64,000 bases of DNA from Methanomassiliicoccales archaeon (GTDB lineage: Archaea > Thermoplasmatota > Thermoplasmata > RBG-16-68-12 > SOIM01). Shown one piece after another: positions 52,555 to 64,000 of the stretch. The position numbers were made by a program, and so were the translations under genes. The stretch is taken from the NCBI GenBank assembly GCA_030593295.1, contig JAUVHO010000004.1, positions 1-64,000 on the forward strand. The letters are read 5' to 3'. Under the pieces are notes generated by a model, which was given only the letters and a program-made list of their open reading frames with translations, was not told where the DNA came from and searched no databases. Position 1 is the first letter of the stretch. The number at the start of each line of letters is the position of its first letter.

Positions 52555-52571
52555 TATTTACCCACATAATA
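52555..52571. repeat. Candidate attL core TATTTACCCACATAATA
   Basis: Exact match to 62829-62845, 54 bp before the integrase start. Confidence 0.82.
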
Positions 52572-52624
52572 TTGGGAATTCCTATCATTTTTTGTGGTTT
52601 AAATACTAGAACACAATTCTAATC

Positions 52625-53770
52625 ATGTCAAGGAAAAAGACAAAGGAAAAAGAGATAGACGAGAGAACCAAGAACCTGATTGAAAGGTATAGGGAGAAGG
52701 CAAATTCAGGGTCTTTGAGTGAATCCACAGTCATCAACACAATTAGTGCTGTGAAAACATTCAAGGTATTCTTGGGTGCAAAGCCACTGGACAGAGTGAC
52801 GGACAGGGACGTGGACAGGTTCTTTAGTTCCGAAAGGGTGAAGACACTCAAAGAGTCGAGTCAGGGTGTGCTCAAGTTGCGACTCAGAAGCTTTTACAGG
52901 TATTTGAATGGAGGCGAAACACCGGAATTTGTCAGTCATCTAAAGGTGAGGAAACTTGGGCAGAAGTCGCCAGTCAAACCAAAAGACATTCTTTCAGAAG
53001 AGGAGGTTCTCTCCATGATAAAAACGTGTCAAATCCCATTGGAGAGGGCAGTCATCTCAGTTTTGTATGAGTCTGCGTGTAGAAGGGGAGAGCTACTGAA
53101 CCTGACAATAGGAGATGTGATAATTGACGATAAAGGAGCTATCATACAAGTGGACGGAAAGACGGGAGAGAGAACCATTCGGCTCATTCACTCAGTCCCA
53201 TTCCTACAGCAGTGGCTAAATCACCATCCACAGGGAGATGACAAGAAGAATAAACTGTTTCCGTTATGGGAACCAGACCTTTTCTCACTTATCAAGAGAG
53301 CGTCCAAAGAGGCAGGAATAGAGAGAAGGGTTTGGGTTCATCTATTCAGACATAGCAGATTGACCCACCTGGCAAAACACCTCACTGAGTCGGAACTGAA
53401 GGTCTTTGCGGGGTGGAAAGCCCACTCTAATATGGCGAGCGTCTACGTTCACCTGAATGGGCATGATTTGGATGACAAACTGGTTAGCATAGCTCAGCAA
53501 GGGAGACCACCACCGAGGGAAGAAGCCGAGCCCTCGCCACTCAAACCGATGAAATGTTCACGCTGTGAGAAAGAGAATCCAGCAGATGCTTTGTACTGCA
53601 ATTGTGGAATGCACCTGCGAGTCGATAGGGCAGTCAAAGATGGGCTGAAACAGACAGAGTTTGAGCAGGTGGTCAAGGAGCTTGTTCAGAAGTTGGCCGG
53701 GGATAGCAATTTCCGAGAGGGGATAAAAGAAGCTTTAAGGATAGCCGAATCCTTCCCGGAACGGAGGTGA
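52625..53770 (+). CDS. Tyrosine recombinase/integrase with C-terminal zinc-ribbon-like CxxC motif
   Basis: SACRRGELLNLTIGDV, HLFRHSRLTHLAKHL, GWKAHSNMASVYVHL (R...HxxR...H...Y); C-terminal CSRCEKENPADALYCNCG. Confidence 0.93.
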   Translation: MSRKKTKEKEIDERTKNLIERYREKANSGSLSESTVINTISAVKTFKVFLGAKPLDRVTDRDVDRFFSSERVKTLKESSQGVLKLRLRSFYRYLNGGETPEFVSHLKVRKLGQKSPVKPKDILSEEEVLSMIKTCQIPLERAVISVLYESACRRGELLNLTIGDVIIDDKGAIIQVDGKTGERTIRLIHSVPFLQQWLNHHPQGDDKKNKLFPLWEPDLFSLIKRASKEAGIERRVWVHLFRHSRLTHLAKHLTESELKVFAGWKAHSNMASVYVHLNGHDLDDKLVSIAQQGRPPPREEAEPSPLKPMKCSRCEKENPADALYCNCGMHLRVDRAVKDGLKQTEFEQVVKELVQKLAGDSNFREGIKEALRIAESFPERR

Positions 53771-53774
53771 ATGT

Positions 53775-54065
53775 ATGCCTGACCATGAGGAAACTCTAAG
53801 ACTCGCTAAGAGAGTGCTTGAGAGAAGAGGCTATAGCGTTTGGGACACGAGGGACAGAAGGACCGTCATCGCCACACCGGAAGGGAACCCCGACCTCAGG
53901 GCCACCAAAGACGGCGAGACGCTTTGGATCGAAGTGAAGCGGGACACCCTACCGTTCGTCAAGCAGATCGAAGGCTATAGCAAACTGGAAGGAAAAACGA
54001 TATTGCTCCTCGGCATAGATACGAGCAACATTGAGCTTTGGGGAATACAAGATTTGGAAATATAG
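53775..54065 (+). CDS. Small PD-(D/E)XK-like nuclease domain protein
   Basis: GNPDLRATKDGETLWIEVKRD matches PD-Xn-ExK; directly follows the integrase. Confidence 0.65.
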   Translation: MPDHEETLRLAKRVLERRGYSVWDTRDRRTVIATPEGNPDLRATKDGETLWIEVKRDTLPFVKQIEGYSKLEGKTILLLGIDTSNIELWGIQDLEI

Positions 54066-54136
54066 TCTTCATAGTGGTAGCCAGTAGGTTTGGGCAAGGC
54101 ACAGTTCTATGTACTCTGATCCGTCAAGTAGGATAT

Positions 54137-54643
54137 TCATCTTCTTAATGGCCAATAGAAACCACAGTCACCCGAAATAATCTTATCCACTCCCTCGTGA
54201 TTATATGTGACATAAGAGAAAATGTGGTATTCGCCTTTTTCCCTGATCTTCCATTGGTCAGGAGTTCTTCTTTCACTTTCAAAGACCTGCTTCTCCTTCC
54301 CTGGTTCCAGAACCCAACTACGCTCATATCCCTTGCTAATCTGTAGCTTTCCCCCATGCATGACCTTGATTACATGGTAACTGACCCAAATGCGATTTTT
54401 TGTCTTGTTCTTGAAGTGATAGACTACACTCATGGCTCCGTTTCTGATGTTAGTCTTGATTGCCAGCTCAAGCGGTCTCTTCTCGCTGAAATACACGATG
54501 CAGAGAACGAAAAATGCTCCAATAGCCACTGACATTATGATGAATGCCAGAATTGTATCGATTGCATCCCCAGCCAATAGGGTCGCTACATTCGCTATCC
54601 ACATTGGTAGGAATATCTTCATCCAGTCTTGTTTCTTCACCAT
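54137..54643 (-). CDS. Small membrane protein, element-encoded
   Basis: Two N-terminal hydrophobic helices, otherwise unrecognised. Confidence 0.6.
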   Translation of the reverse strand: MVKKQDWMKIFLPMWIANVATLLAGDAIDTILAFIIMSVAIGAFFVLCIVYFSEKRPLELAIKTNIRNGAMSVVYHFKNKTKNRIWVSYHVIKVMHGGKLQISKGYERSWVLEPGKEKQVFESERRTPDQWKIREKGEYHIFSYVTYNHEGVDKIISGDCGFYWPLRR

Positions 54644-54780
54644 ATCCCTTATATCCTCAATTCTTCCGGTGAATAAAAGAGTTATCTCTTGGAGATTCTA
54701 TGGTGCACCAAAGTTAACTTACTGGATACCACTCAATTCAAACTATATCCTATATACTAAACCCTGTTTTATTGACAATC

Positions 54781-55275
54781 ATGAGGCAGTTAAATACCCC
54801 TGCAATAGGGTATGCCAGGAGTAGCGAAGGCAGAGAGCTAAGCCTTCAGACTCAAGTTGATGCCATAAAGAGAATCTGTGAGGCGAGAGGGATGGACCTG
54901 AAAGGAATCGTAGAAGAAGCTGGTTCCGCCTTTGATGGTTCGTACAGGGGACAGTTTCAGAAGATTCTGCAGGGGATAGATGGATGGGGCATATTGGTAG
55001 CGTACGACCTTTCTCGCATATCAAGGTCTTGGACAGAGTGGCTAGACATCCTCTCTCAGCTTGATGCGAAAGGGAAAAGGATTCTTACTTGTCAAGGGGA
55101 ACTCGACACGTCCACTGCCGATGGCTGGATGCTCGCCATGTTTCAGATAGTTCTGGCGTGCTATCAGTCACGGAAGATGTCCGAAACTATTCGGTCAGGG
55201 TTGGAGAGAACGAACAAGAGGATCGGGAGACATCCGAGGAACTGCCAGTGCGACAAGCATAGAAAGAAAAACTGA
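54781..55275 (+). CDS. Serine recombinase (resolvase/invertase catalytic domain)
   Basis: AIGYARSSEGRELSLQTQVDAIKRICEARG, VAYDLSRISRSWTEWLDILSQLDAKGKRILTCQGELDTSTADGWMLAMFQIVLACYQSRKMSETIRSGLER. Confidence 0.9.
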   Translation: MRQLNTPAIGYARSSEGRELSLQTQVDAIKRICEARGMDLKGIVEEAGSAFDGSYRGQFQKILQGIDGWGILVAYDLSRISRSWTEWLDILSQLDAKGKRILTCQGELDTSTADGWMLAMFQIVLACYQSRKMSETIRSGLERTNKRIGRHPRNCQCDKHRKKN

Positions 55276-55636
55276 GTGAAGATGGAGGAATTCTGGGCAC
55301 AAGAGCCAATGGCAGGTTGTTTATGTATCTGCTATCGCAGTTTGGGCAGTAATGCCCACCTACAGACAGTATATGGGCATCTAGACAGTGACTCACACCT
55401 AGAGTATGCCACTCAATCACCGTTTCTCAAGACCAGTTACCCTTTTGACCGAGAATGGACAGTCTATGATGTCCAGATATTACGCCAATGTATATGTCGC
55501 ATCTAAATACCGACACTTCATAATATTCAGCATGGAAAGAATTCGCCAGTCTGGAAACAGACAAAAGGAAACGCACAGAGGACTCGCTTAGATCCTTCCG
55601 GCTCTGAGCCTCTCCCATTCTTTTTTGGGTGAGAAG

Positions 55637-55819
55637 ATGAAAGAAACCGTCTATGAGAACCCCGCTGGAATACACTCCTATCTACTGCACGCACCGAAGT
55701 TCCTGTTTCGGAAGTTCAAAGAGCAGTGCAAGCAGGAAGGAATCAGCATGCAAGAATGTCTGGAGTCGTTCATGTCGGAATTTGTCTATGACGATGGTGA
55801 AGAAGATGTCGATGAGTAG
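55637..55819 (+). CDS. Small ribbon-helix-helix-like protein
   Basis: KFLFRKFKEQCKQEGISMQECLESFMSEFV resembles an RHH helix-turn-helix; short. Confidence 0.45.
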   Translation: MKETVYENPAGIHSYLLHAPKFLFRKFKEQCKQEGISMQECLESFMSEFVYDDGEEDVDE

Positions 55820-56069
55820 ACTAGCCTGGAGAGCACTTGCTAGACTGGGCACGTCCTTGATTGAGGAAGGAGTTCCTGAAGAATTAGTTAATTCGATTTT
55901 GCAGAAGGTGACACGGAAAGTGACACTGTATCACCAAAATCCTGAGAATTATGCCGACTCTGGCTACTCCGATTGGCAGAAAGATGGCAATGGTTGGCCC
56001 GAAGATGAGGATGACGAGGATGGTGAGGGTTTCGTGGATCAGGAAGATGAGGATGGTGAGGACGAATGA
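55806..56069 (+). CDS. Small protein with very acidic C-terminal tail
   Basis: Overlaps previous ORF; MSMSRLAWRALARLGTSLIEEGVPEELVNSILQKV...EDEDDEDGEGFVDQEDEDGEDE. Confidence 0.55.
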   Translation: MSMSRLAWRALARLGTSLIEEGVPEELVNSILQKVTRKVTLYHQNPENYADSGYSDWQKDGNGWPEDEDDEDGEGFVDQEDEDGEDE

Positions 56070-56224
56070 TTGCTGATGGTGAAGAACCGAGACCCACATA
56101 CTGCCCGAGCTGTGGAGGAACCAATTTACAGACGAGAATGCGAAAGAATACCACTTGGATCGGCTGTCTGGATTGTGCTCATGTCTGGAACCCGCTTTCA
56201 TCTGAGGAGAGGATGATGGTATGA
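56066..56224 (+). CDS. 52-aa zinc-ribbon protein (not in the supplied ORF track)
   Basis: My translation: MIADGEEPRPTYCPSCGGTNLQTRMRKNTTWIGCLDCAHVWNPLSSEERMMV*; ATGA overlaps at both ends. Confidence 0.65.
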   Translation: MIADGEEPRPTYCPSCGGTNLQTRMRKNTTWIGCLDCAHVWNPLSSEERMMV

Positions 56225-56508
56225 CGAAAGACTTTCTCCGTGACCTAATGCAGTCCGTTGCCAGCGAGTACGAACTCGAACCTGCAACGGACATCTTCAT
56301 TCTGCCTGAAATTGAGGAACCGACCTATTTTTTCGCAAGCAACTTCGTGGTTCTTCCAGACGATAGGGACTTGAAATCGGACATCGTTCACGAACTCCTC
56401 CATGCCACTTTTCCAGAACTATCGGAAAGCGAGGTTGAGGAAATTACGATGTGCCTTGAGGATGACGAAGATGACGAAGTCGAAGATGGTGCTCAGTTCT
56501 GCCTTTGA
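56221..56508 (+). CDS. Minimal HExxH-motif (metallopeptidase-like) protein with acidic tail
   Basis: SDIVHELLHATFPELSESEVEEI; ATGA overlap with the upstream zinc-ribbon ORF. Confidence 0.6.
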   Translation: MTKDFLRDLMQSVASEYELEPATDIFILPEIEEPTYFFASNFVVLPDDRDLKSDIVHELLHATFPELSESEVEEITMCLEDDEDDEVEDGAQFCL

Positions 56509-56647
56509 GCTTGGAATGGTCTATTTCAAGCCCTGCGACGCCAAGGAACTCCGTTCTGGCGAGTGGCTGGTCTTAGAGGTCTTGAAGGAGAAAGGGAATA
56601 GAACGATCTATCACATGCCAAAAAAGGGCACAGACTACAAGAATTGA
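56462..56647 (+). CDS. Small hypothetical element protein
   Basis: DAKELRSGEWLVLEVLKEKG, similar to the SGEWLVVE motif of 62514..62771; overlaps the previous ORF. Confidence 0.45.
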   Translation: MTKMTKSKMVLSSAFELGMVYFKPCDAKELRSGEWLVLEVLKEKGNRTIYHMPKKGTDYKN

Positions 56648-56665
56648 CGTGGAATCCCGTCCTCG

Positions 56666-57742
56666 TCACTCGTCCTCCGCCTTCGGAATCCACACTGCTT
56701 TCTTGCCCCTAAGGTCAGCATGCTTACTTGTCTTTGTCCACCGAGCTATCTTCAGTCCCAAGTCAGTCATAATTCTACTGAGTTCGGACTTCGACATAGG
56801 TGGAAGATGGTAAACCTGTCTAGAGTCATTCACGTCGGATATGAACTCGTCAATATGAACTGCTTCAGTCCCTGCTCCCTGGTATACTCGTACCACTCCT
56901 TGAACGTACATCTTCTCCATAGAAATTAACTCGGGAGCATACCTTAGAGTCTCTTGTCCATCTAACTTGACCCCGGCGAGTTTGGCGCACACTTGTAGGT
57001 ATTTCCAAAACTTATACCTTCTAGACCCCACTTCATCCATGAATTTTTGGTCGTCCTTGATGGAAGTGTAGACGGTGTCCCAGTCCTTTTTATCGAAGTC
57101 GGCATTGACTTTGGATGCTATTTTCTTTCCTATGTTATCTTCTTCGTCCCATGAGTCTTCTTCTCTATCCACTATGTCTATTCTATTGGACCGAGTAGAG
57201 CCAAATATTATGCCCCTATCCGCGTCATGGTCCGTAGGAACTTCTCTAGTAGGAACCAACTTGGAGCCGAACATCTCCTTCTCGTCGGACACCCAAGTTC
57301 CCCCGGATTGAACCATCTTTCGACGTGTGCTACTCGATGACCAAGATAGACGCACAATTCTCCAAAAGGCGTCTTTTTCTAGTAGAGAAAGAGACTCAAT
57401 TTCATCCATGCCTACTATCTTCCACTCAGCACACGCATTTAGAAAGTTTACTAAGGTCACTTCCGCAACCCACTTACCCTTCATGAGATGGCACAACGTC
57501 TCCATGAAGTACGACTTGCCACTTCTGAACTGACCATGGGCAATTATGTGCGGCGCCTTAGCTGTCCAACCTTGTCTTTGTGCTTCGGCCAGAATAGGTA
57601 GTAGACATGCTACATCTAGATTGTCTTTACTCAACCCATCTATTCTATGCTCGATGCGATCTCGCGCCTTCCCAACCCAGTCCTTCAAGGAATTTGCCTT
57701 ATTTGGTTTTCTAGAATTCTTTCCCTTTACTTTTTTTGCCAT
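56666..57742 (-). CDS. P-loop ATPase/helicase-like protein, candidate replication protein
   Basis: Walker A-like GQFRSGKSYFMETL, Walker B-like WKIVGMDEIE; adjacent to iteron region. Confidence 0.65.
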   Translation of the reverse strand: MAKKVKGKNSRKPNKANSLKDWVGKARDRIEHRIDGLSKDNLDVACLLPILAEAQRQGWTAKAPHIIAHGQFRSGKSYFMETLCHLMKGKWVAEVTLVNFLNACAEWKIVGMDEIESLSLLEKDAFWRIVRLSWSSSSTRRKMVQSGGTWVSDEKEMFGSKLVPTREVPTDHDADRGIIFGSTRSNRIDIVDREEDSWDEEDNIGKKIASKVNADFDKKDWDTVYTSIKDDQKFMDEVGSRRYKFWKYLQVCAKLAGVKLDGQETLRYAPELISMEKMYVQGVVRVYQGAGTEAVHIDEFISDVNDSRQVYHLPPMSKSELSRIMTDLGLKIARWTKTSKHADLRGKKAVWIPKAEDE

Positions 57743-57939
57743 GCTATCGACTCCTTCAACGCCCTACTAGGACGCGGCACTGTGCGTTAAAGGGTGGAGA
57801 CGGAGTTGCGCCAAGGTAGGGGCCCATTCCGTCTCCCACTGTTCCTGTAATTCAATATGTCAGTGGTGTTATAAGTAAACTTGGATAGTCATTACGGCCT
57901 CTGATTTGTGTGCGGTGTTTTGTGGGTAAATTCCACTTC

Positions 57940-58142
57940 AAGGACACAAAGGACACAAGAATTGCTACATATTAGGTGTAATTAGTGTGTTTGTGTGTTG
58001 TGTTTGTGTAGAGTAAGGTATCTACTCTAATAATGACACAACACAATTGGTGGTTTTAGGCATGGAATTGGTGTTAACTTGTGTATTTGTGTGAGTGGGT
58101 ACCAAGAAACGTGCAATGTCGAGAACACAAATGACACAAGAA
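57940..58142. repeat. Iteron-like direct and inverted repeats (ACACAARNGACACAAG family), candidate replication origin
   Basis: AGGACACAAAGGACACAAGA (57941-57960), AGAACACAAATGACACAAGA (58122-58141), inverted TTGTGTATTTGTGTGA (58079-58094) and GTGTGTTTGTGTGTTGTGTTTGTGT between. Confidence 0.65.
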
Positions 58143-58374
58143 CGCTATGCCATCTAATGCACTGCACCCCTTTCTGCAGTGCTACCTAAGGGCTCTTTGC
58201 GTTCTGATGTCTCTATGACCGTCAGTTGCTTCATCTGTCGTGTCAGAGAGCAAGTTTATGGATGGTTTTGGATGGTTGTTTGAAATTTAAAAGCAACTAT
58301 CTAGCAACCGTTCCAAAACCGTGTCAAACCGTGTGTCATTGATACATCCTGTTTTGTAGTTGCTTCGGTAGAGG

Positions 58375-58394
58375 GTGTATCAGAGTGTATCAGA
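58375..58394 (+). repeat. Tandem 10-bp repeat GTGTATCAGA x2, candidate operator
   Basis: Exact adjacent copies upstream of a small ORF; inverted half TGATACATCC about 35 bp upstream. Confidence 0.55.
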
Positions 58395-58428
58395 TGCACG
58401 TTTTTTTAATGTCTGTACATGAACCGAA

Positions 58429-58662
58429 GTGGCAGTTATCTCAAATGGAGATTCCCGTTCTCAGCGCCGTGAGGCACTTCGTAAGAATGACAGAGGATCG
58501 GAGAACAGCATTCTGTCGGCCTATGTGTGGTTTTCAAGAAGCCTTAACTGGCAACTTCGGTGTATGAAGAAAAAGGGGGTTCTGTCACGGATTCTGGGGT
58601 GGAACTGTTACCGATGTCATAAGACAACTTGGGCGCAATGTCTAGACTATGTTAAGCGGTAA
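58429..58662 (+). CDS. Small basic protein, possibly DNA-binding
   Basis: GTG-start ORF behind the repeats; C-terminal CYRCHKTTWAQC. Confidence 0.35.
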   Translation: MAVISNGDSRSQRREALRKNDRGSENSILSAYVWFSRSLNWQLRCMKKKGVLSRILGWNCYRCHKTTWAQCLDYVKR

Positions 58663-59368
58663 TGTTCATCACTAGTTTCTTCTGAGTTCCCTCACAGTTG
58701 TCTCCTGACGAAAAGCAAAGGAGTTCCTTCTTACCAACAATTGTGGAAGGCACATAGATATTAACTTGATGAATGAAATGATAATCGGGACGAAGGAGCT
58801 CGGAAGACACTAATACACGATGTCTTCCTTTGAACTCTCCATATGTGCCCACGGTATTCTCATAACCCTCTCCTTCCCTAGCCTCAGTATCCTTTGGCAA
58901 GATCAAATCAAAAAATGCGTTACGACACGGCAAACTGCCACTGTTCTGAAATAAGAGGGGAATAACCCTCTCCCCGTGAGACAGGGTAACCTCTTCTGTG
59001 CCATCGGTAAAAGCAACAATCAATTTGGGTACCTTTCCTGATTCACTTGCCATGACGTCTAATAGAGACAGTAATGTTTGCCCAAGCCTTTCCAAATTCT
59101 CATTCGATTCCGCAATTCTCCCTGACACCTTTACTAGTTGGTCTACGAACTTCTCTGATGAGTCAACAGATGCTCTCAGTTGTACAACAGCCACGTAGAC
59201 AGCAATGACCATAAGAAAAGCCAGGAAAATACTCACGCCTGCAGTGAAAACCAATCCCAAGTCGAGACCTAGACTATACGAGAAAGAGAATAACAGGACA
59301 ATTATGATGATACTCACTATCAAAGACCTGAGCATATCCAGTCCAAGGAGGAATCTTTTTCGAACCAA
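58652..59368 (-). CDS. Membrane protein with two TMs, coiled-coil and C-terminal beta-rich domain
   Basis: Hydrophobic N-terminus; uninterrupted ORF. Confidence 0.55.
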   Translation of the reverse strand: MVRKRFLLGLDMLRSLIVSIIIIVLLFSFSYSLGLDLGLVFTAGVSIFLAFLMVIAVYVAVVQLRASVDSSEKFVDQLVKVSGRIAESNENLERLGQTLLSLLDVMASESGKVPKLIVAFTDGTEEVTLSHGERVIPLLFQNSGSLPCRNAFFDLILPKDTEAREGEGYENTVGTYGEFKGRHRVLVSSELLRPDYHFIHQVNIYVPSTIVGKKELLCFSSGDNCEGTQKKLVMNITA

Positions 59369-59578
59369 CAGCTTCCACCCAGCTAGTATAATCGACCCTC
59401 CAGATAAAAAGATGATGGTGAAACCCCATCAATAGTCCATGAAGGTTTCCTGATTTTTTCAAAACAGTCAACAGGCGAGACCTTGGAAAAAATCTGAGAA
59501 CTGCTCGCCTTCCCTACGAATGAACCTAGGATTCTGTGGGTTAATTAGGATATTCCCAAAATACTGTCGGACAGAGAA

Positions 59579-59791
59579 TCATTCGCTCTCAGTGCGACCT
59601 ATTTGGTCTACGATATTGCCAGTCACAGTTGGTCTGTATTGACCTTCAACATATTCGCCAACCTTGGCTTCATAGTCTTTTATCGAGGAGGGAATCGCAA
59701 GCTCTAGAGTCTCACCACTTACATCGAGAATTTTTATTCTGTTTTCCAATATAGAGACAACTTTTCCTCCAAAACCTATGTTATCTGTCAA
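59579..59791 (-). CDS. Small hypothetical protein, OB-fold-like
   Basis: NIGFGGKVVSILENRIKILDVSGETLELAIPSSIKDYEAKVGEYVEGQYRP. Confidence 0.4.
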   Translation of the reverse strand: MTDNIGFGGKVVSILENRIKILDVSGETLELAIPSSIKDYEAKVGEYVEGQYRPTVTGNIVDQIGRTESE

Positions 59792-59932
59792 TTCGATCTC
59801 CTCCGAACCATGATTGTCGAGGTCGTATAAGATGGTTCGGGAAATGGTTATCTGTCACGTCAAGTAGGATATGTAGCTTTGGTTCAGTGCAGAAAAGGTG
59901 GGTGCTGAATCGGACAACTGGCTGACAGACTA

Positions 59933-60332
59933 CTATATCTCCCTCATTTTTCTAAGGAATTTTCTACCTTTAATTGTAATTGTAAATACTTTGGTATAGA
60001 TCCCCAAACCCTCACTTGTGACATCTATCAACCCCTCTTCCTCAAGGTAATCCAACGAGTCCGAAACCTCCTCCTTCGAGTATAGTCCTTGGAGAGTGTC
60101 TTCAACATATTCATCTTTCTCTGCCTCGCACTTCTCCCCGAATCTTTCCCAGATATGTCAATATCTCCAGTTTGGCTCCACCGATTTCAACCATGCTATC
60201 CCTCTCGAAGAGACCGCCCACCACTCTCACTATGTTGATGGCAAAGCGAGGGTGATTGGTGGGCATTGTATGATTCTTCACGACTTCCTGAATGTCACAG
60301 TATGGGTGGAGAGATATACTCATAGAACCCAA
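59933..60332 (-). pseudogene. Winged-helix-like protein split by an apparent 1-nt frameshift near 60150
   Basis: Frame 1 ...GGAKLEILTY joins frame 2 WERFGEKCEAEKDEYVEDTLQGLYSKEEVSDSLDYLEEEGLIDVTSEGLGIYTKVFTITIKGRKFLRKMREI* if one base is removed. Confidence 0.55.
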
Positions 60333-60429
60333 GGAAACGCCGTATATGATGAAGTGTGATGTTCGCCAACATCAATGATGTGGCCTCATTTCATTCATGC
60401 GGAAAAGGCCAATGGTGATTCAGGGTTGC

Positions 60430-61107
60430 TCAGCATGCAGGAAGTCCGGAGCCAACACCTGATGAAAACAGCAACCAAGCTCCAACTCCAAAGATAGCCC
60501 CAAAGGCAACAAGTAATCCAATTGCTCCGAAAATACCAAAACCGAGCAATGTCCCCAAAACTCCGGACCAGGCAAGGAGTACCAAGAGGATTATGCCAAT
60601 GATTATGAGACCCAACCCAAGAAGCAGATTATCATAATTCACCTCAACGCAAGGTACCAGTGTCTTCTGTGAAACGTTCCCTCTATCTATCAGAATCGCT
60701 TGGTCATCATAAGCTTCCACGACATATAGGTAGAGAGTGCCTTCGTCAAGCCCTGTGTCGACATACGACACCGCATCAGGGTCATTGAGGGTAGCCAAAA
60801 CAGAGAGGGAATCGTCTTCTCCTCCCTCTCTCCAAACGAGATAGTACTTCACGGAGCCCATAATTGGCTTGTCCCATTCGAATTTGACCACGGTCTGGCT
60901 CACGTCAGTTACATGGACGTTTAGGTCAGCAAGCGACTGATACGGGACTATCAATGCCATAACGAGGAACATGATCCCAATGAAACTTCCTACCCTCCGC
61001 ATGTCAACCGGAAAGTAATAGTGTGCATTCAACTTTAAGCTTTTCCTCAATTCAAACTGCTTTGGGATGTAGATGACAAACCAAGGGCAAACCTGCATTA
61101 TGCGCAT
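60430..61107 (-). CDS. Membrane protein with one FnIII-like ectodomain and C-terminal TM helices
   Basis: VHVTDVSQTVVKFEWDKPIMGSVKYYLVWREGG...YVDTGLDEGTLYLYVVEAYDD then hydrophobic Gly-rich helices. Confidence 0.6.
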   Translation of the reverse strand: MRIMQVCPWFVIYIPKQFELRKSLKLNAHYYFPVDMRRVGSFIGIMFLVMALIVPYQSLADLNVHVTDVSQTVVKFEWDKPIMGSVKYYLVWREGGEDDSLSVLATLNDPDAVSYVDTGLDEGTLYLYVVEAYDDQAILIDRGNVSQKTLVPCVEVNYDNLLLGLGLIIIGIILLVLLAWSGVLGTLLGFGIFGAIGLLVAFGAIFGVGAWLLFSSGVGSGLPAC

Positions 61108-61277
61108 TCCAGGTCGAGCTTGAAGGCTCCTGAGCCATAGAACAAGTCTGTCAAGATGATGGACAAAGGTCTATAGAAACCTTTAGATAATTGCATGGGG
61201 TTATAGGTATACGTGTGTTTACGGTGTATTACCGTAGCACAGACTCGGAGAGACTGGTTGACCTTCAAAAGTCAAAA

Positions 61278-61352
61278 GGAGAGGCGTGGATTCGAACCAC
61301 GATTACGCCTTTAGAGGGAGCTGGCGCGTACTGTCCTTTATACTACCTCTCC
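61278..61352 (-). tRNA. Atypical tRNA or tRNA-like gene with a 13-nt anticodon loop; apparent CUA in a CUCUAAA context
   Basis: GGAGAGG/CCTCTCC acceptor, GTAT/GTAC D stem with GG in the loop, CGTGG-TTCGAAT-CCACG T arm, GCGCC/GGCGT anticodon stem around AGCTCCCTCTAAA; TATA-like TTATATAC about 25 nt upstream; T-rich downstream. Confidence 0.6.
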
Positions 61353-61653
61353 GAGTACGATATCATTGGAATTGTATATAACCCTGCCTTTTCTGAGTGA
61401 GTTAAAGGAATTGGTTAAAGCTATTGTTTTGGTGGTTTGTCTTCGATAAGGGTATCCTGTGTTGAAGTTAAATAGCTTAGGATAAGGTGGGCGAAAGTAT
61501 TGCTGTTTGGTGATAACTGGGGGGTTTTGGAACCGTGTTGTATAGTTACGGGGTCGTGAGGAGGCTGTGGTTCTATTGGTGTATTGAGGATACTTGAAGG
61601 TTTGAGAGAATGTTTTTATTGTGGGAGGTTGTTGTTAGTTATGGAGGATTGAT

Positions 61654-62364
61654 GTGGTTAATGTAGTTAGTGTGTATTCAGTGATGATTGGTGTGTTGAC
61701 ATTATTGGTAGGTTTTTATTTTGTGATGATGGGTAGGATTATGGGGGGGCTGTCTGGGATGTTAGGTCGGGCGAGGGCAACGTCGGATGCTTGTGGTGAG
61801 TTTGTGAGTAGCGTTGAGGGGAAGTTTGTGTATTTGATGAGTGCTCTCGAAGGTGTTGGTAATGAGAAGGTTGAGGATGGAAAGGCGAAGGTGGAGATGA
61901 GTCGAAAAATGGATGATGTGCGACGGAGGATGAAACTGAGTGTGGATGCGGACAAGGTTAAGGCGGAGCGTATGAAGAAGGCTTGCGGTGAAGTGGAGGA
62001 GCTGTTGGGTGAGTTGAGGTCTCTTGAGATGGGTGTGACTTTGGTACTGTTTCCTGTTATTGTATATTTGTTGTTATTAATGACAGTATATAGTGGGGAG
62101 GTTTTGTGGGAGATAAATATGGCGTTGGTGAATGTTGTTGTCGGTTGGGGTATTTTTGTAATTGCTGCTGTATTTGTCGGTTGGCTGTTGGTGGGAATGT
62201 CGAGAGTCTCTGATATCGCGGTGGCTGTTGTGGCGGATGTTGATCTACGAATGGAGTGGTATATGGATGATGTATTTGCTACTGGTATCGGATGGTGTGA
62301 TAGGGAGTTGGATCGGCGGATTGGTGAAGTGCAAGTGAGGGCGTGGGTTAAGGAGGTGAGTTGA
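61654..62364 (+). CDS. Membrane/coiled-coil protein in a strongly C-depleted segment
   Basis: TM segments at N-terminus and centre, coiled-coil between; GTG/TTG-rich codon usage. Confidence 0.55.
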   Translation: MVNVVSVYSVMIGVLTLLVGFYFVMMGRIMGGLSGMLGRARATSDACGEFVSSVEGKFVYLMSALEGVGNEKVEDGKAKVEMSRKMDDVRRRMKLSVDADKVKAERMKKACGEVEELLGELRSLEMGVTLVLFPVIVYLLLLMTVYSGEVLWEINMALVNVVVGWGIFVIAAVFVGWLLVGMSRVSDIAVAVVADVDLRMEWYMDDVFATGIGWCDRELDRRIGEVQVRAWVKEVS

Positions 62365-62513
62365 GGGTGTTGTCGGTCTGTACTTTTTTCTCTGAGAGCG
62401 AGTTGTAGGGTATAACTCTTAATGGACGCTCTTCTTCAATAGTCTCTGGGATTGGTTCGGGTTTCCTCCTTGTCTGTTTTGACCAATGGGCCAGAACTGA
62501 GAAAAAAAGAGAA

Positions 62514-62771
62514 CTACTCGCCCTCTTTCTCGGTCTCCGCCTCAACGACTAGCCATTCGCCAGAGGCCAACTTCTTGACCAACTCGGTGGTCATGTATGA
62601 GATTGCTCGCGGCTCTTTGGCTCCGAAATAGCGCGTATAAGGCGCCCAGTCTTCGCTCTGGATGACGAGCATGTGTTTTGTGGGTGGCTTTCCCTCAACC
62701 TCAGGCGGTCGTTCAATCTGCTTGCGCACATCTACAGGTCTGGTTTCCAAATTTCTCACCTCAAAAATCAA
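62514..62771 (-). CDS. Small hypothetical element protein
   Basis: Intact ORF; LASGEWLVVEAETEKEGE shared with 56462..56647. Confidence 0.5.
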   Translation of the reverse strand: MIFEVRNLETRPVDVRKQIERPPEVEGKPPTKHMLVIQSEDWAPYTRYFGAKEPRAISYMTTELVKKLASGEWLVVEAETEKEGE

Positions 62772-62824
62772 TTGGAAAGTGGTATTAGAATTACCATCAG
62801 TGGATGTGATAATAATAGGATTTC

Positions 62825-64000
62825 TCAGTATTTACCCACATAATAGTAGTGAACCTTCCTGCCCTTCTTCTCCGTTCGGATCAAACCCCTCTCTTCGAGC
62901 TTGCTCATCTGGTAACTTACACTTGATTGATGGATCCCAAGCACCGACGCCATTTCCTTCTGGGTGATGCCTGGAAGGTCCTTCGCAGAGTCCGTTATCC
63001 TCTTCTGGACCTCGGTGAGCACCCCGCCATTGGTGACAGGTATCTGCGTGCCCCGGGTGTAGAACCTCCTGAACCTCCCGTCCCTCCTGGACTTGATCTT
63101 CTCACCCTGCTCCAGCACCCGGAGGTGATGGACCAGTGACCCGTTGGGAAGACCCAGGTCACGTTTGATCTGGTTGTAATGCTCTCCGGGATTTATCTCG
63201 ATGTACTGGTACACCCTGCCCCTGTCGTAGTTGTCCAGCAACTTGCCCTTCTTGAGCTTCATGTACAACGGCACGAAGAGCGATATGAGAGCGATCTTGA
63301 ACCCTTCGGATGCCAGGAATACTGCCACGCCCGCACTCAGGATTATTGAGGAGCCCAGAACAACCAGGAACTCGAACGGGATCCAGAACCCTGCGTCGGC
63401 CTGAGGTGGAGCGATGATTATGGAAAGCTGCTTGTCCTGTTCGATGGCATCTTCCACAGACCCAGTTAGGTCGTCCTTGACCGCGGATATGACGTGCGGC
63501 GTATGTGGCTCGCTTCCGTCGCTGGTGTCCACCTTCTGGGTGAGCATGAACTCGTCCGTCCATCCGTCGCCCCTGGTGAACAGCGATTTCACTTCATCCC
63601 CGAAGAAGTCGAGGACCGAGACCTTGGCCTGTTGGACCGGCTGGCCGTCTTCATCAAGAACATGGACCTTCAAGCGCCACTTCATGGTCATCGAGGACCT
63701 GGAGTCCAGCTCGACGTTCCCGAAGGTGCTGCTGACGCTTTCCAGCTCGGTATCGAGAAGGGAGACCTCATCAACCTGGGAATCCTCGACGTACACTGGA
63801 TCTCTCCCAACATCGTTGTCGATGATAGTGCCGTCAGTGCTTCCCACCAGGTGAATCGCGTCCTTGTCCGACCCGTCTATGACGTTCTTCTCGATCCGGG
63901 GTGAAGCGTTCTCGCAGTAGATGCCGTAGTCTGACCCAGTGATGGTGTTATGATAGATCAGCGAAGATGAATCCTCGCAGTATATGCCGATCTTATTGCC
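62825..64000 (-). CDS. Transmembrane regulator: beta-helix (NosD-like) ectodomain, TM, C-terminal winged-helix domains; 5' end beyond window
   Basis: Reading frame stays open to the window end (GNKIGIYCEDSSSLIYHNTITGSDYGIYCENASPRIEKNVIDGSDKDAIHLVGS...); TM; NPGEHYNQIKRDLGLPNGSLVHHLRVLEQG and LPGITQKEMASVLGIHQSSVSYQMSKLEERGLI. Confidence 0.85.
   Translation of the reverse strand, partial: GNKIGIYCEDSSSLIYHNTITGSDYGIYCENASPRIEKNVIDGSDKDAIHLVGSTDGTIIDNDVGRDPVYVEDSQVDEVSLLDTELESVSSTFGNVELDSRSSMTMKWRLKVHVLDEDGQPVQQAKVSVLDFFGDEVKSLFTRGDGWTDEFMLTQKVDTSDGSEPHTPHVISAVKDDLTGSVEDAIEQDKQLSIIIAPPQADAGFWIPFEFLVVLGSSIILSAGVAVFLASEGFKIALISLFVPLYMKLKKGKLLDNYDRGRVYQYIEINPGEHYNQIKRDLGLPNGSLVHHLRVLEQGEKIKSRRDGRFRRFYTRGTQIPVTNGGVLTEVQKRITDSAKDLPGITQKEMASVLGIHQSSVSYQMSKLEERGLIRTEKKGRKVHYYYVGKY
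62829..62845. repeat. Candidate attR core TATTTACCCACATAATA
   Basis: Exact match to 52555-52571; lies in the last codons of the 62825 gene. Confidence 0.82.

What the first reader, a model, noticed from the sequence alone, without database searches (positions are those of the whole stretch)
61278..61352. Element-encoded tRNA-like gene with an oversized anticodon loop and apparent amber-reading CUA
Acceptor, D and T arms are canonical (GGAGAGG/CCTCTCC, GTAT/GTAC, CGTGG-TTCGAAT-CCACG), and a TATA box plus T-rich end support expression. But the anticodon stem GCGCC/GGCGT encloses 13 nt, AGCTCCCTCTAAA. The only U33-compatible reading is CU-CUA-AA, i.e. a UAG anticodon preceded by 6 extra bases; variable loop is 3 nt. 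It may be a suppressor, a processed intron form, or a tRNA decoy.
Basis: partly seen in the sequence, partly recalled or inferred. Interest (0 to 1): 0.7.

Follow-up and report, generated by a model that had tools for sequence, protein, structure and literature searches.

The report
Mobile-element tRNA-Arg with broken anticodon loop
A small mobile DNA element in an archaeon carries an arginine-type transfer-RNA gene that keeps a perfect tRNA shape and its own promoter but has four extra letters in the loop that reads the genetic code, so it probably no longer reads codons; it is not a stop-codon reader.

Summary
A minus-strand tRNA gene (61352..61277) scores 43.7 bits with Rfam tRNA (cut-off 29) and has an oversized anticodon loop and a TATA-like promoter. 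It lies inside a 10.27-kb integrated element, 52555-62845. The element is bounded by a 17-bp repeat, and two same-genus genomes have the empty site, so the gene is element cargo and not an attachment-site tRNA.

The amber reading is not supported. A covariance model of this gene finds its best relatives among tRNA-Arg (9 of 10 genomic hits), headed by archaeal Arg(UCU), which align with a 4-nt gap inside our anticodon loop. Of 36 regular viral tRNAs with the same D arm, 33 are Arg. In that register the anticodon is UCU. The departures are 4 extra loop nucleotides, an A31·A39 mismatch, no U33 beside the anticodon, and U73. All 16 pairs of the acceptor, D and T stems are intact, a count reached by only 2 of those 36.

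No PylS was found, UAG is an ordinary stop, and 4-6 nt is too short for an archaeal intron.

Best reading: an AGA-supplying virus-type tRNA-Arg(UCU) that recently lost decoding. A folded, non-decoding decoy remains possible; with no second copy of the element, selection cannot be tested.

The parts
61277..61352 (-). tRNA-Arg(UCU)-type gene with a 4-nt expanded anticodon loop; the T of position 73 is at 61277
   Evidence: RF00005 43.7 bits; relatives are tRNA-Arg
61310..61322 (-). 13 nt between the two halves of the 4-bp anticodon stem: A31, an 11-nt loop GCTCCCTCTAA, A39
   Evidence: sequence; structure alignments with a 4-nt gap here
61374..61381 (-). TATA-like promoter box (TTATATAC), 22-29 nt upstream of the tRNA
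   Evidence: sequence; compared with host tRNA upstream regions
52555..62845 (.). integrated mobile element that carries the tRNA, with 17-bp direct repeats TATTTACCCACATAATA at both ends
   Evidence: two same-genus genomes have the uninterrupted site; repeat D18; junction sequences
52555..52571 (+). left copy of the att repeat
62829..62845 (+). right copy of the att repeat, at the 3' end of a host protein gene
52625..53770 (+). tyrosine integrase of the element
   Evidence: PF00589 1.5e-14; phrog_1 1.5e-28
54772..55275 (+). serine recombinase with a resolvase catalytic domain only
   Evidence: PF00239 3.4e-23
56666..57742 (-). 358-aa element protein; P-loop-like motif GQFRSGKSY seen by eye; no family match
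   Evidence: no relative in 399 genomes of the class
60430..61107 (-). fn3-domain, apparently membrane-bound protein; next gene downstream of the tRNA on the same strand
   Evidence: PF00041 1.1e-5

Best explanation
The gene is cargo of a small integrated archaeal element. It descends from a tRNA-Arg(UCU), an AGA-reading tRNA of the kind viruses often carry, and has gained four nucleotides in the 5' half of its anticodon loop. It also has an A31-A39 mismatch and U73. It is probably transcribed and folds as a tRNA, but it cannot present a normal anticodon loop, so it does not decode in the usual way. The most likely history is recent loss of decoding in a tRNA that the element once used to supply AGA-reading capacity. 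Shown: element location, tRNA fold, relatedness to tRNA-Arg, the lesions. Inferred: expression, loss of decoding, ancestral AGA supply.
For: tRNA model match 43.7 bits. Inside the element. Covariance model of this gene, E <= 1e-6: over 399 genomes of the class the five other places are all tRNA-Arg; over 392 of the phylum the top two are archaeal Arg(TCT) at 49.3 bits, aligned end to end except for a 4-nt gap in our loop, and of 10 distinct places in the two searches 9 are Arg and one is a tRNA in a phage-like array called Ile. The only IMG/VR hit for the near-exact D arm is a phage tRNA-Arg(TCT), 44.1 bits. Of 36 regular viral tRNAs with this D arm, 33 have Arg anticodons, 36 have U33, 36 pair 31-39, 35 have A/G73 and 4 have variable TAAT. 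A20, the main Arg determinant in bacteria, is present (PMC9976931). AGA is 23.4 per thousand codons in the element against 8.9 in flanking host genes. TATA-like box.
Against: All 16 acceptor, D and T pairs are intact, a count reached by only 2 of 36 regular relatives, so there is no sign of general decay: the loss must be recent or the fold is still selected. The AGA excess may partly follow from the element's lower GC. No second copy of the element was found. Archaeal Arg identity rules are poorly known (PMC9976931), so the meaning of U73 is uncertain.
Confidence: 0.5

Rival explanations
1. A maintained, non-decoding tRNA mimic. It keeps the tRNA body under selection but has a loop that enzymes acting on the anticodon (tRNA nucleases, ArgRS, modification enzymes) cannot process normally, so it works as a decoy or a cleavage-resistant tRNA.
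For: Perfect acceptor, D and T stems, with the lesions confined to the anticodon region and position 73. Other viral tRNA-Arg-like genes with the same D arm have abnormal anticodon arms: L065/L069 with a 3-nt loop, L146 with +2 nt. Phage tRNAs are proposed to evade anticodon nucleases through loop mutations (PMC10264068).
Against: The evasion described in that paper is by loop mutations in tRNAs held to support translation; the words insertion and decoy do not occur in its text. No defence-family protein was found in the element. No conserved copies exist to test selection.
Confidence: 0.22
2. A sequencing or assembly error inserted 4 nt into an ordinary tRNA-Arg(UCU) gene of the element.
For: A single fragmented assembly, 87.7% complete, 91 contigs; no second copy to compare.
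Against: A 4-nt insertion outside a homopolymer is an unusual assembly error, and the A31-A39 mismatch and U73 would remain unexplained.
Confidence: 0.1
3. A still-decoding tRNA-Arg that tolerates an 11-nt loop and reads AGA through UCU.
For: UCU followed by AA is preserved at the aligned position; AGA is enriched in the element.
Against: U33 next to the anticodon is universal in the 36 relatives and absent here, 31-39 is unpaired, and position 73 is U.
Confidence: 0.1
4. An amber (UAG) suppressor with anticodon CUA.
For: The letters CTCTAAA look like a standard loop with CUA, and ARAGORN with introns calls Pyl(CTA).
Against: The register needs a 5-bp stem that uses base 26 and a 3-nt variable region, against all relatives. 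Six unexplained loop bases remain. No PylS above cut-off. Two of 11 element genes end in TAG, as host genes do, and reading TAG through extends frames without restoring a recognisable domain.
Confidence: 0.04
5. An intron-bearing tRNA whose short intron is spliced out.
For: Several tRNAs of this genome carry introns.
Against: The excess is 4-6 nt, below the 11-129 nt range given for archaeal tRNA introns (PMC4090602), and a bulge-helix-bulge of two 3-nt bulges and 4 bp (PMC4033280) does not fit in 13 nt.
Confidence: 0.03

Closest known systems
Virus-encoded tRNA-Arg(UCU), for example on IMG/VR contig 3300002834_000024 (L058)
   Same: Near-identical D arm GTAGTATAA-GGACAGTAC, base 26 outside the stem, 4-nt variable region, A20, UCU in register
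   Different: L058 has a regular 7-nt loop CTTCTAA, a 31-39 A-U pair and A73
Cellular archaeal tRNA-Arg(UCU) of G647 and G609
   Same: Best match among 392 genomes of the phylum, 49.3 bits, aligned end to end
   Different: Regular loop and G73; a 4-nt gap opposite our loop
Phage tRNAs proposed to evade anticodon nucleases (PMC10264068)
   Same: Virus-borne tRNAs with changed anticodon loops
   Different: Those are proposed to stay active in translation; ours has an insertion that should stop decoding
tRNA-Pyl / CUA suppressor tRNAs
   Same: The string CTCTAAA only
   Different: Two bases between acceptor and D stem, 8-nt D loop with GG, 4-bp stem, no PylS; the Pyl features are from general knowledge

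Membership tests
tRNA (RF00005) | covariance-model score above gathering threshold over the full model | tested here: met
   43.7 bits against 29, positions 1-71 of 71
tRNA (RF00005) | 7-nt anticodon loop with U33 | tested here: not met
   11-nt loop in the family register; C precedes UCU
tRNA-Arg(UCU) | closest sequence relatives are tRNA-Arg | tested here: met
   33 of 36 D-arm relatives are Arg
tRNA-Arg(UCU) | A20 and C35 | tested here: inconclusive
   A20 present; C35 present only if the anticodon is taken in the aligned register
tRNA-Arg(UCU) | discriminator A or G at 73 | tested here: not met
   T at 73; A or G in 35 of 36 relatives; the archaeal rule is not established
tRNA-Arg(UCU) | arginylation and reading of AGA | not testable with these tools
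   needs biochemistry
CUA suppressor / tRNA-Pyl | CUA in a 7-nt loop on a 5- or 6-bp stem | tested here: not met
   loop longer than 7 nt in every register; family register gives UCU
CUA suppressor / tRNA-Pyl | PylS in the genome | tested here: not met
   only sub-cut-off matches of 36 bits against 178; genome 87.7% complete
CUA suppressor / tRNA-Pyl | in-frame UAG in element genes | tested here: not met
   TAG=Q reading adds no coherent extension; TAG ends 2 of 11 element genes
Intron-containing archaeal tRNA | intron of at least about 11 nt with a bulge-helix-bulge | tested here: not met
   4-6 nt excess
Attachment-site tRNA of an integrated element | tRNA sequence forms the att repeat | tested here: not met
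   att repeat is TATTTACCCACATAATA at the 3' end of a protein gene; no tRNA repeat in the contig

The most novel reading that the evidence does not exclude
Some viruses and integrated elements keep tRNA-Arg-shaped RNAs whose anticodon loop is unusable by design, as decoys for anticodon-cleaving defences or for ArgRS. This gene, with a perfect body and a +4 loop, and the phage genes with 3-nt or +2 loops would be members of that class.
Probability: 0.15. Interest if true: 0.75.

Novelty: new variant of a known kind. Interest (0 to 1): 0.33.

Why it matters
Why viruses and mobile elements carry tRNAs is an open question, with codon supply and defence evasion as the main answers. A tRNA-Arg whose body is perfect but whose loop cannot decode would separate the two, because it could matter only through something other than decoding. 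If it is merely a recent wreck, it is a caution against calling a suppressor tRNA from a CUA-looking loop.

Tried and rejected
Amber suppressor or Pyl: rejected by register, relatives, PylS search and UAG usage. Intron: too short. Attachment-site tRNA: rejected by the empty site and the non-tRNA att repeat. Searches that found no relative of the element or no copy of the tRNA: BLAST in 60 relatives, phage and plasmid records, IMG/VR with the integrase, the 358-aa protein and the fn3 protein, the loop string in IMG/VR and GTDB genomes (the five genome hits lie outside tRNAs), the 358-aa protein in 399 genomes. The integrase has only distant relatives, at about 30-40% identity. A complementary-target idea from a 12-nt match at contig position 75941 was dropped: about two such matches are expected by chance and the sense is wrong.

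Full report
**What is there.** The minus strand at 61352..61277 reads GGAGAGG TA GTAT AAAGGACA GTAC G CGCC AGCTCCCTCTAAA GGCG TAAT CGTGG TTCGAAT CCACG CCTCTCC T. Rfam's tRNA model covers it from end to end at 43.7 bits, above its threshold of 29, and the whole-genome search lists it as the weakest of 38 tRNA matches. It folds better than all 200 shuffles. ARAGORN misses it unless introns are allowed. A TATA-like box starts 29 nt upstream, close to where several host tRNAs have theirs, and a T-rich stretch follows. Expression is plausible but not shown.

**It is cargo of a mobile element.** Two genomes of the same genus match window 37.6-52.571 kb and 62.830-67.9 kb as one uninterrupted stretch at 92-94% identity. 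The interruption is flanked by the 17-bp repeat TATTTACCCACATAATA at 52555 and 62829; the uninterrupted genomes have one copy, differing in its first base. The element is therefore about 10.27 kb and sits at the 3' end of a host protein gene, not of a tRNA. It encodes a tyrosine integrase, a resolvase-domain protein, a 358-aa protein with a P-loop-like motif, and several small or membrane proteins. No defence-family match was found among the ten proteins scanned. That the host is an archaeon is inferred from the TATA-type promoters, the tRNA introns and the archaeal family matches.

**Which tRNA it is.** A covariance model built from this gene alone was run on 399 genomes of the class and 392 of the phylum, with some genomes in both. 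Of 10 distinct matches other than the gene itself, 9 are tRNA-Arg and one is a tRNA called Ile in a phage-like array. The best two, at 49.3 bits, are archaeal tRNA-Arg(UCU) that align throughout except for a 4-nt gap in our anticodon loop. The only IMG/VR contig with the near-exact D arm carries a phage tRNA-Arg(UCU) with the same alignment. Two looser D-arm scans gave 43 distinct viral tRNA-like genes. Of the 36 with regular length, 33 have Arg anticodons, all have U33 and a 31-39 pair, and 35 have A or G at 73. In this register our gene has G26, a 4-bp stem, A31 facing A39, four extra loop bases, UCU preceded by C, and U73. Its variable region TAAT is a form found in the family.

**Why it is not an amber suppressor.** The CUA reading pairs base 26 into the stem and shortens the variable region to 3 nt, against all relatives, and still leaves six loop bases unexplained. 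PylS matches only far below its cut-off. UAG ends genes in the element as in the host, and reading it as sense adds no coherent extension. The intron reading fails on length: archaeal tRNA introns range from 11 to 129 nt (PMC4090602).

**What it does.** The element uses AGA 2.6 times as often as flanking host genes (23.4 against 8.9 per thousand). This fits an ancestral role of supplying an AGA-reading tRNA, though lower GC may contribute. The lesions hit loop length, the base before the anticodon, the closing pair and the discriminator, so normal arginine decoding is unlikely. Yet all 16 acceptor, D and T pairs are intact, a count reached by only 2 of 36 regular relatives. General decay is therefore not seen. 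Either the loss is recent, which I think most likely, or the fold is kept for a non-decoding use such as a decoy for anticodon nucleases, a role related to the proposal for phage tRNAs in PMC10264068. With no second copy of the element found, selection cannot be tested here.

**Verdict.** A real, element-borne tRNA gene with a genuinely odd loop, and a variant of a known kind (virus-type tRNA-Arg). The suppressor and intron readings are not supported. The decoy reading stays open at low probability.

Noticed in passing
L071, L088, L091 (IMG/VR contigs of 106, 257 and 343 kb): tRNA-Arg-like genes with about 50 extra nucleotides between the D arm and the anticodon arm, partly conserved among the three (shared GGTTATCTT); L088 keeps a clear CTACGAA loop.
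   Followed up: partly
L065:4154-4221 and L069:10863-10930: Phage tRNA-Arg-like gene with a 3-nt anticodon 'loop' (GCGGA-GAG-TCCGT), near other odd tRNAs.
   Followed up: partly
L053 (G015 contig C94, 5.4 kb): An array of at least 16 tRNA genes, one with a CTA anticodon, on a small contig binned with an archaeal genome; looks like a viral fragment.
   Followed up: no
window 59940-60332, minus strand: What looks like a helix-turn-helix-type gene of the element split by a frameshift (read by eye).
   Followed up: no
own genome contigs C8, C22, C29, C64, C71: Related tyrosine integrases lie next to tRNA genes, whereas this element uses the 3' end of a protein gene.
   Followed up: no
window 61400-62400: A strongly G- and T-rich strand with a 236-aa open frame (61654-62364) that matches no family.
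   Followed up: no
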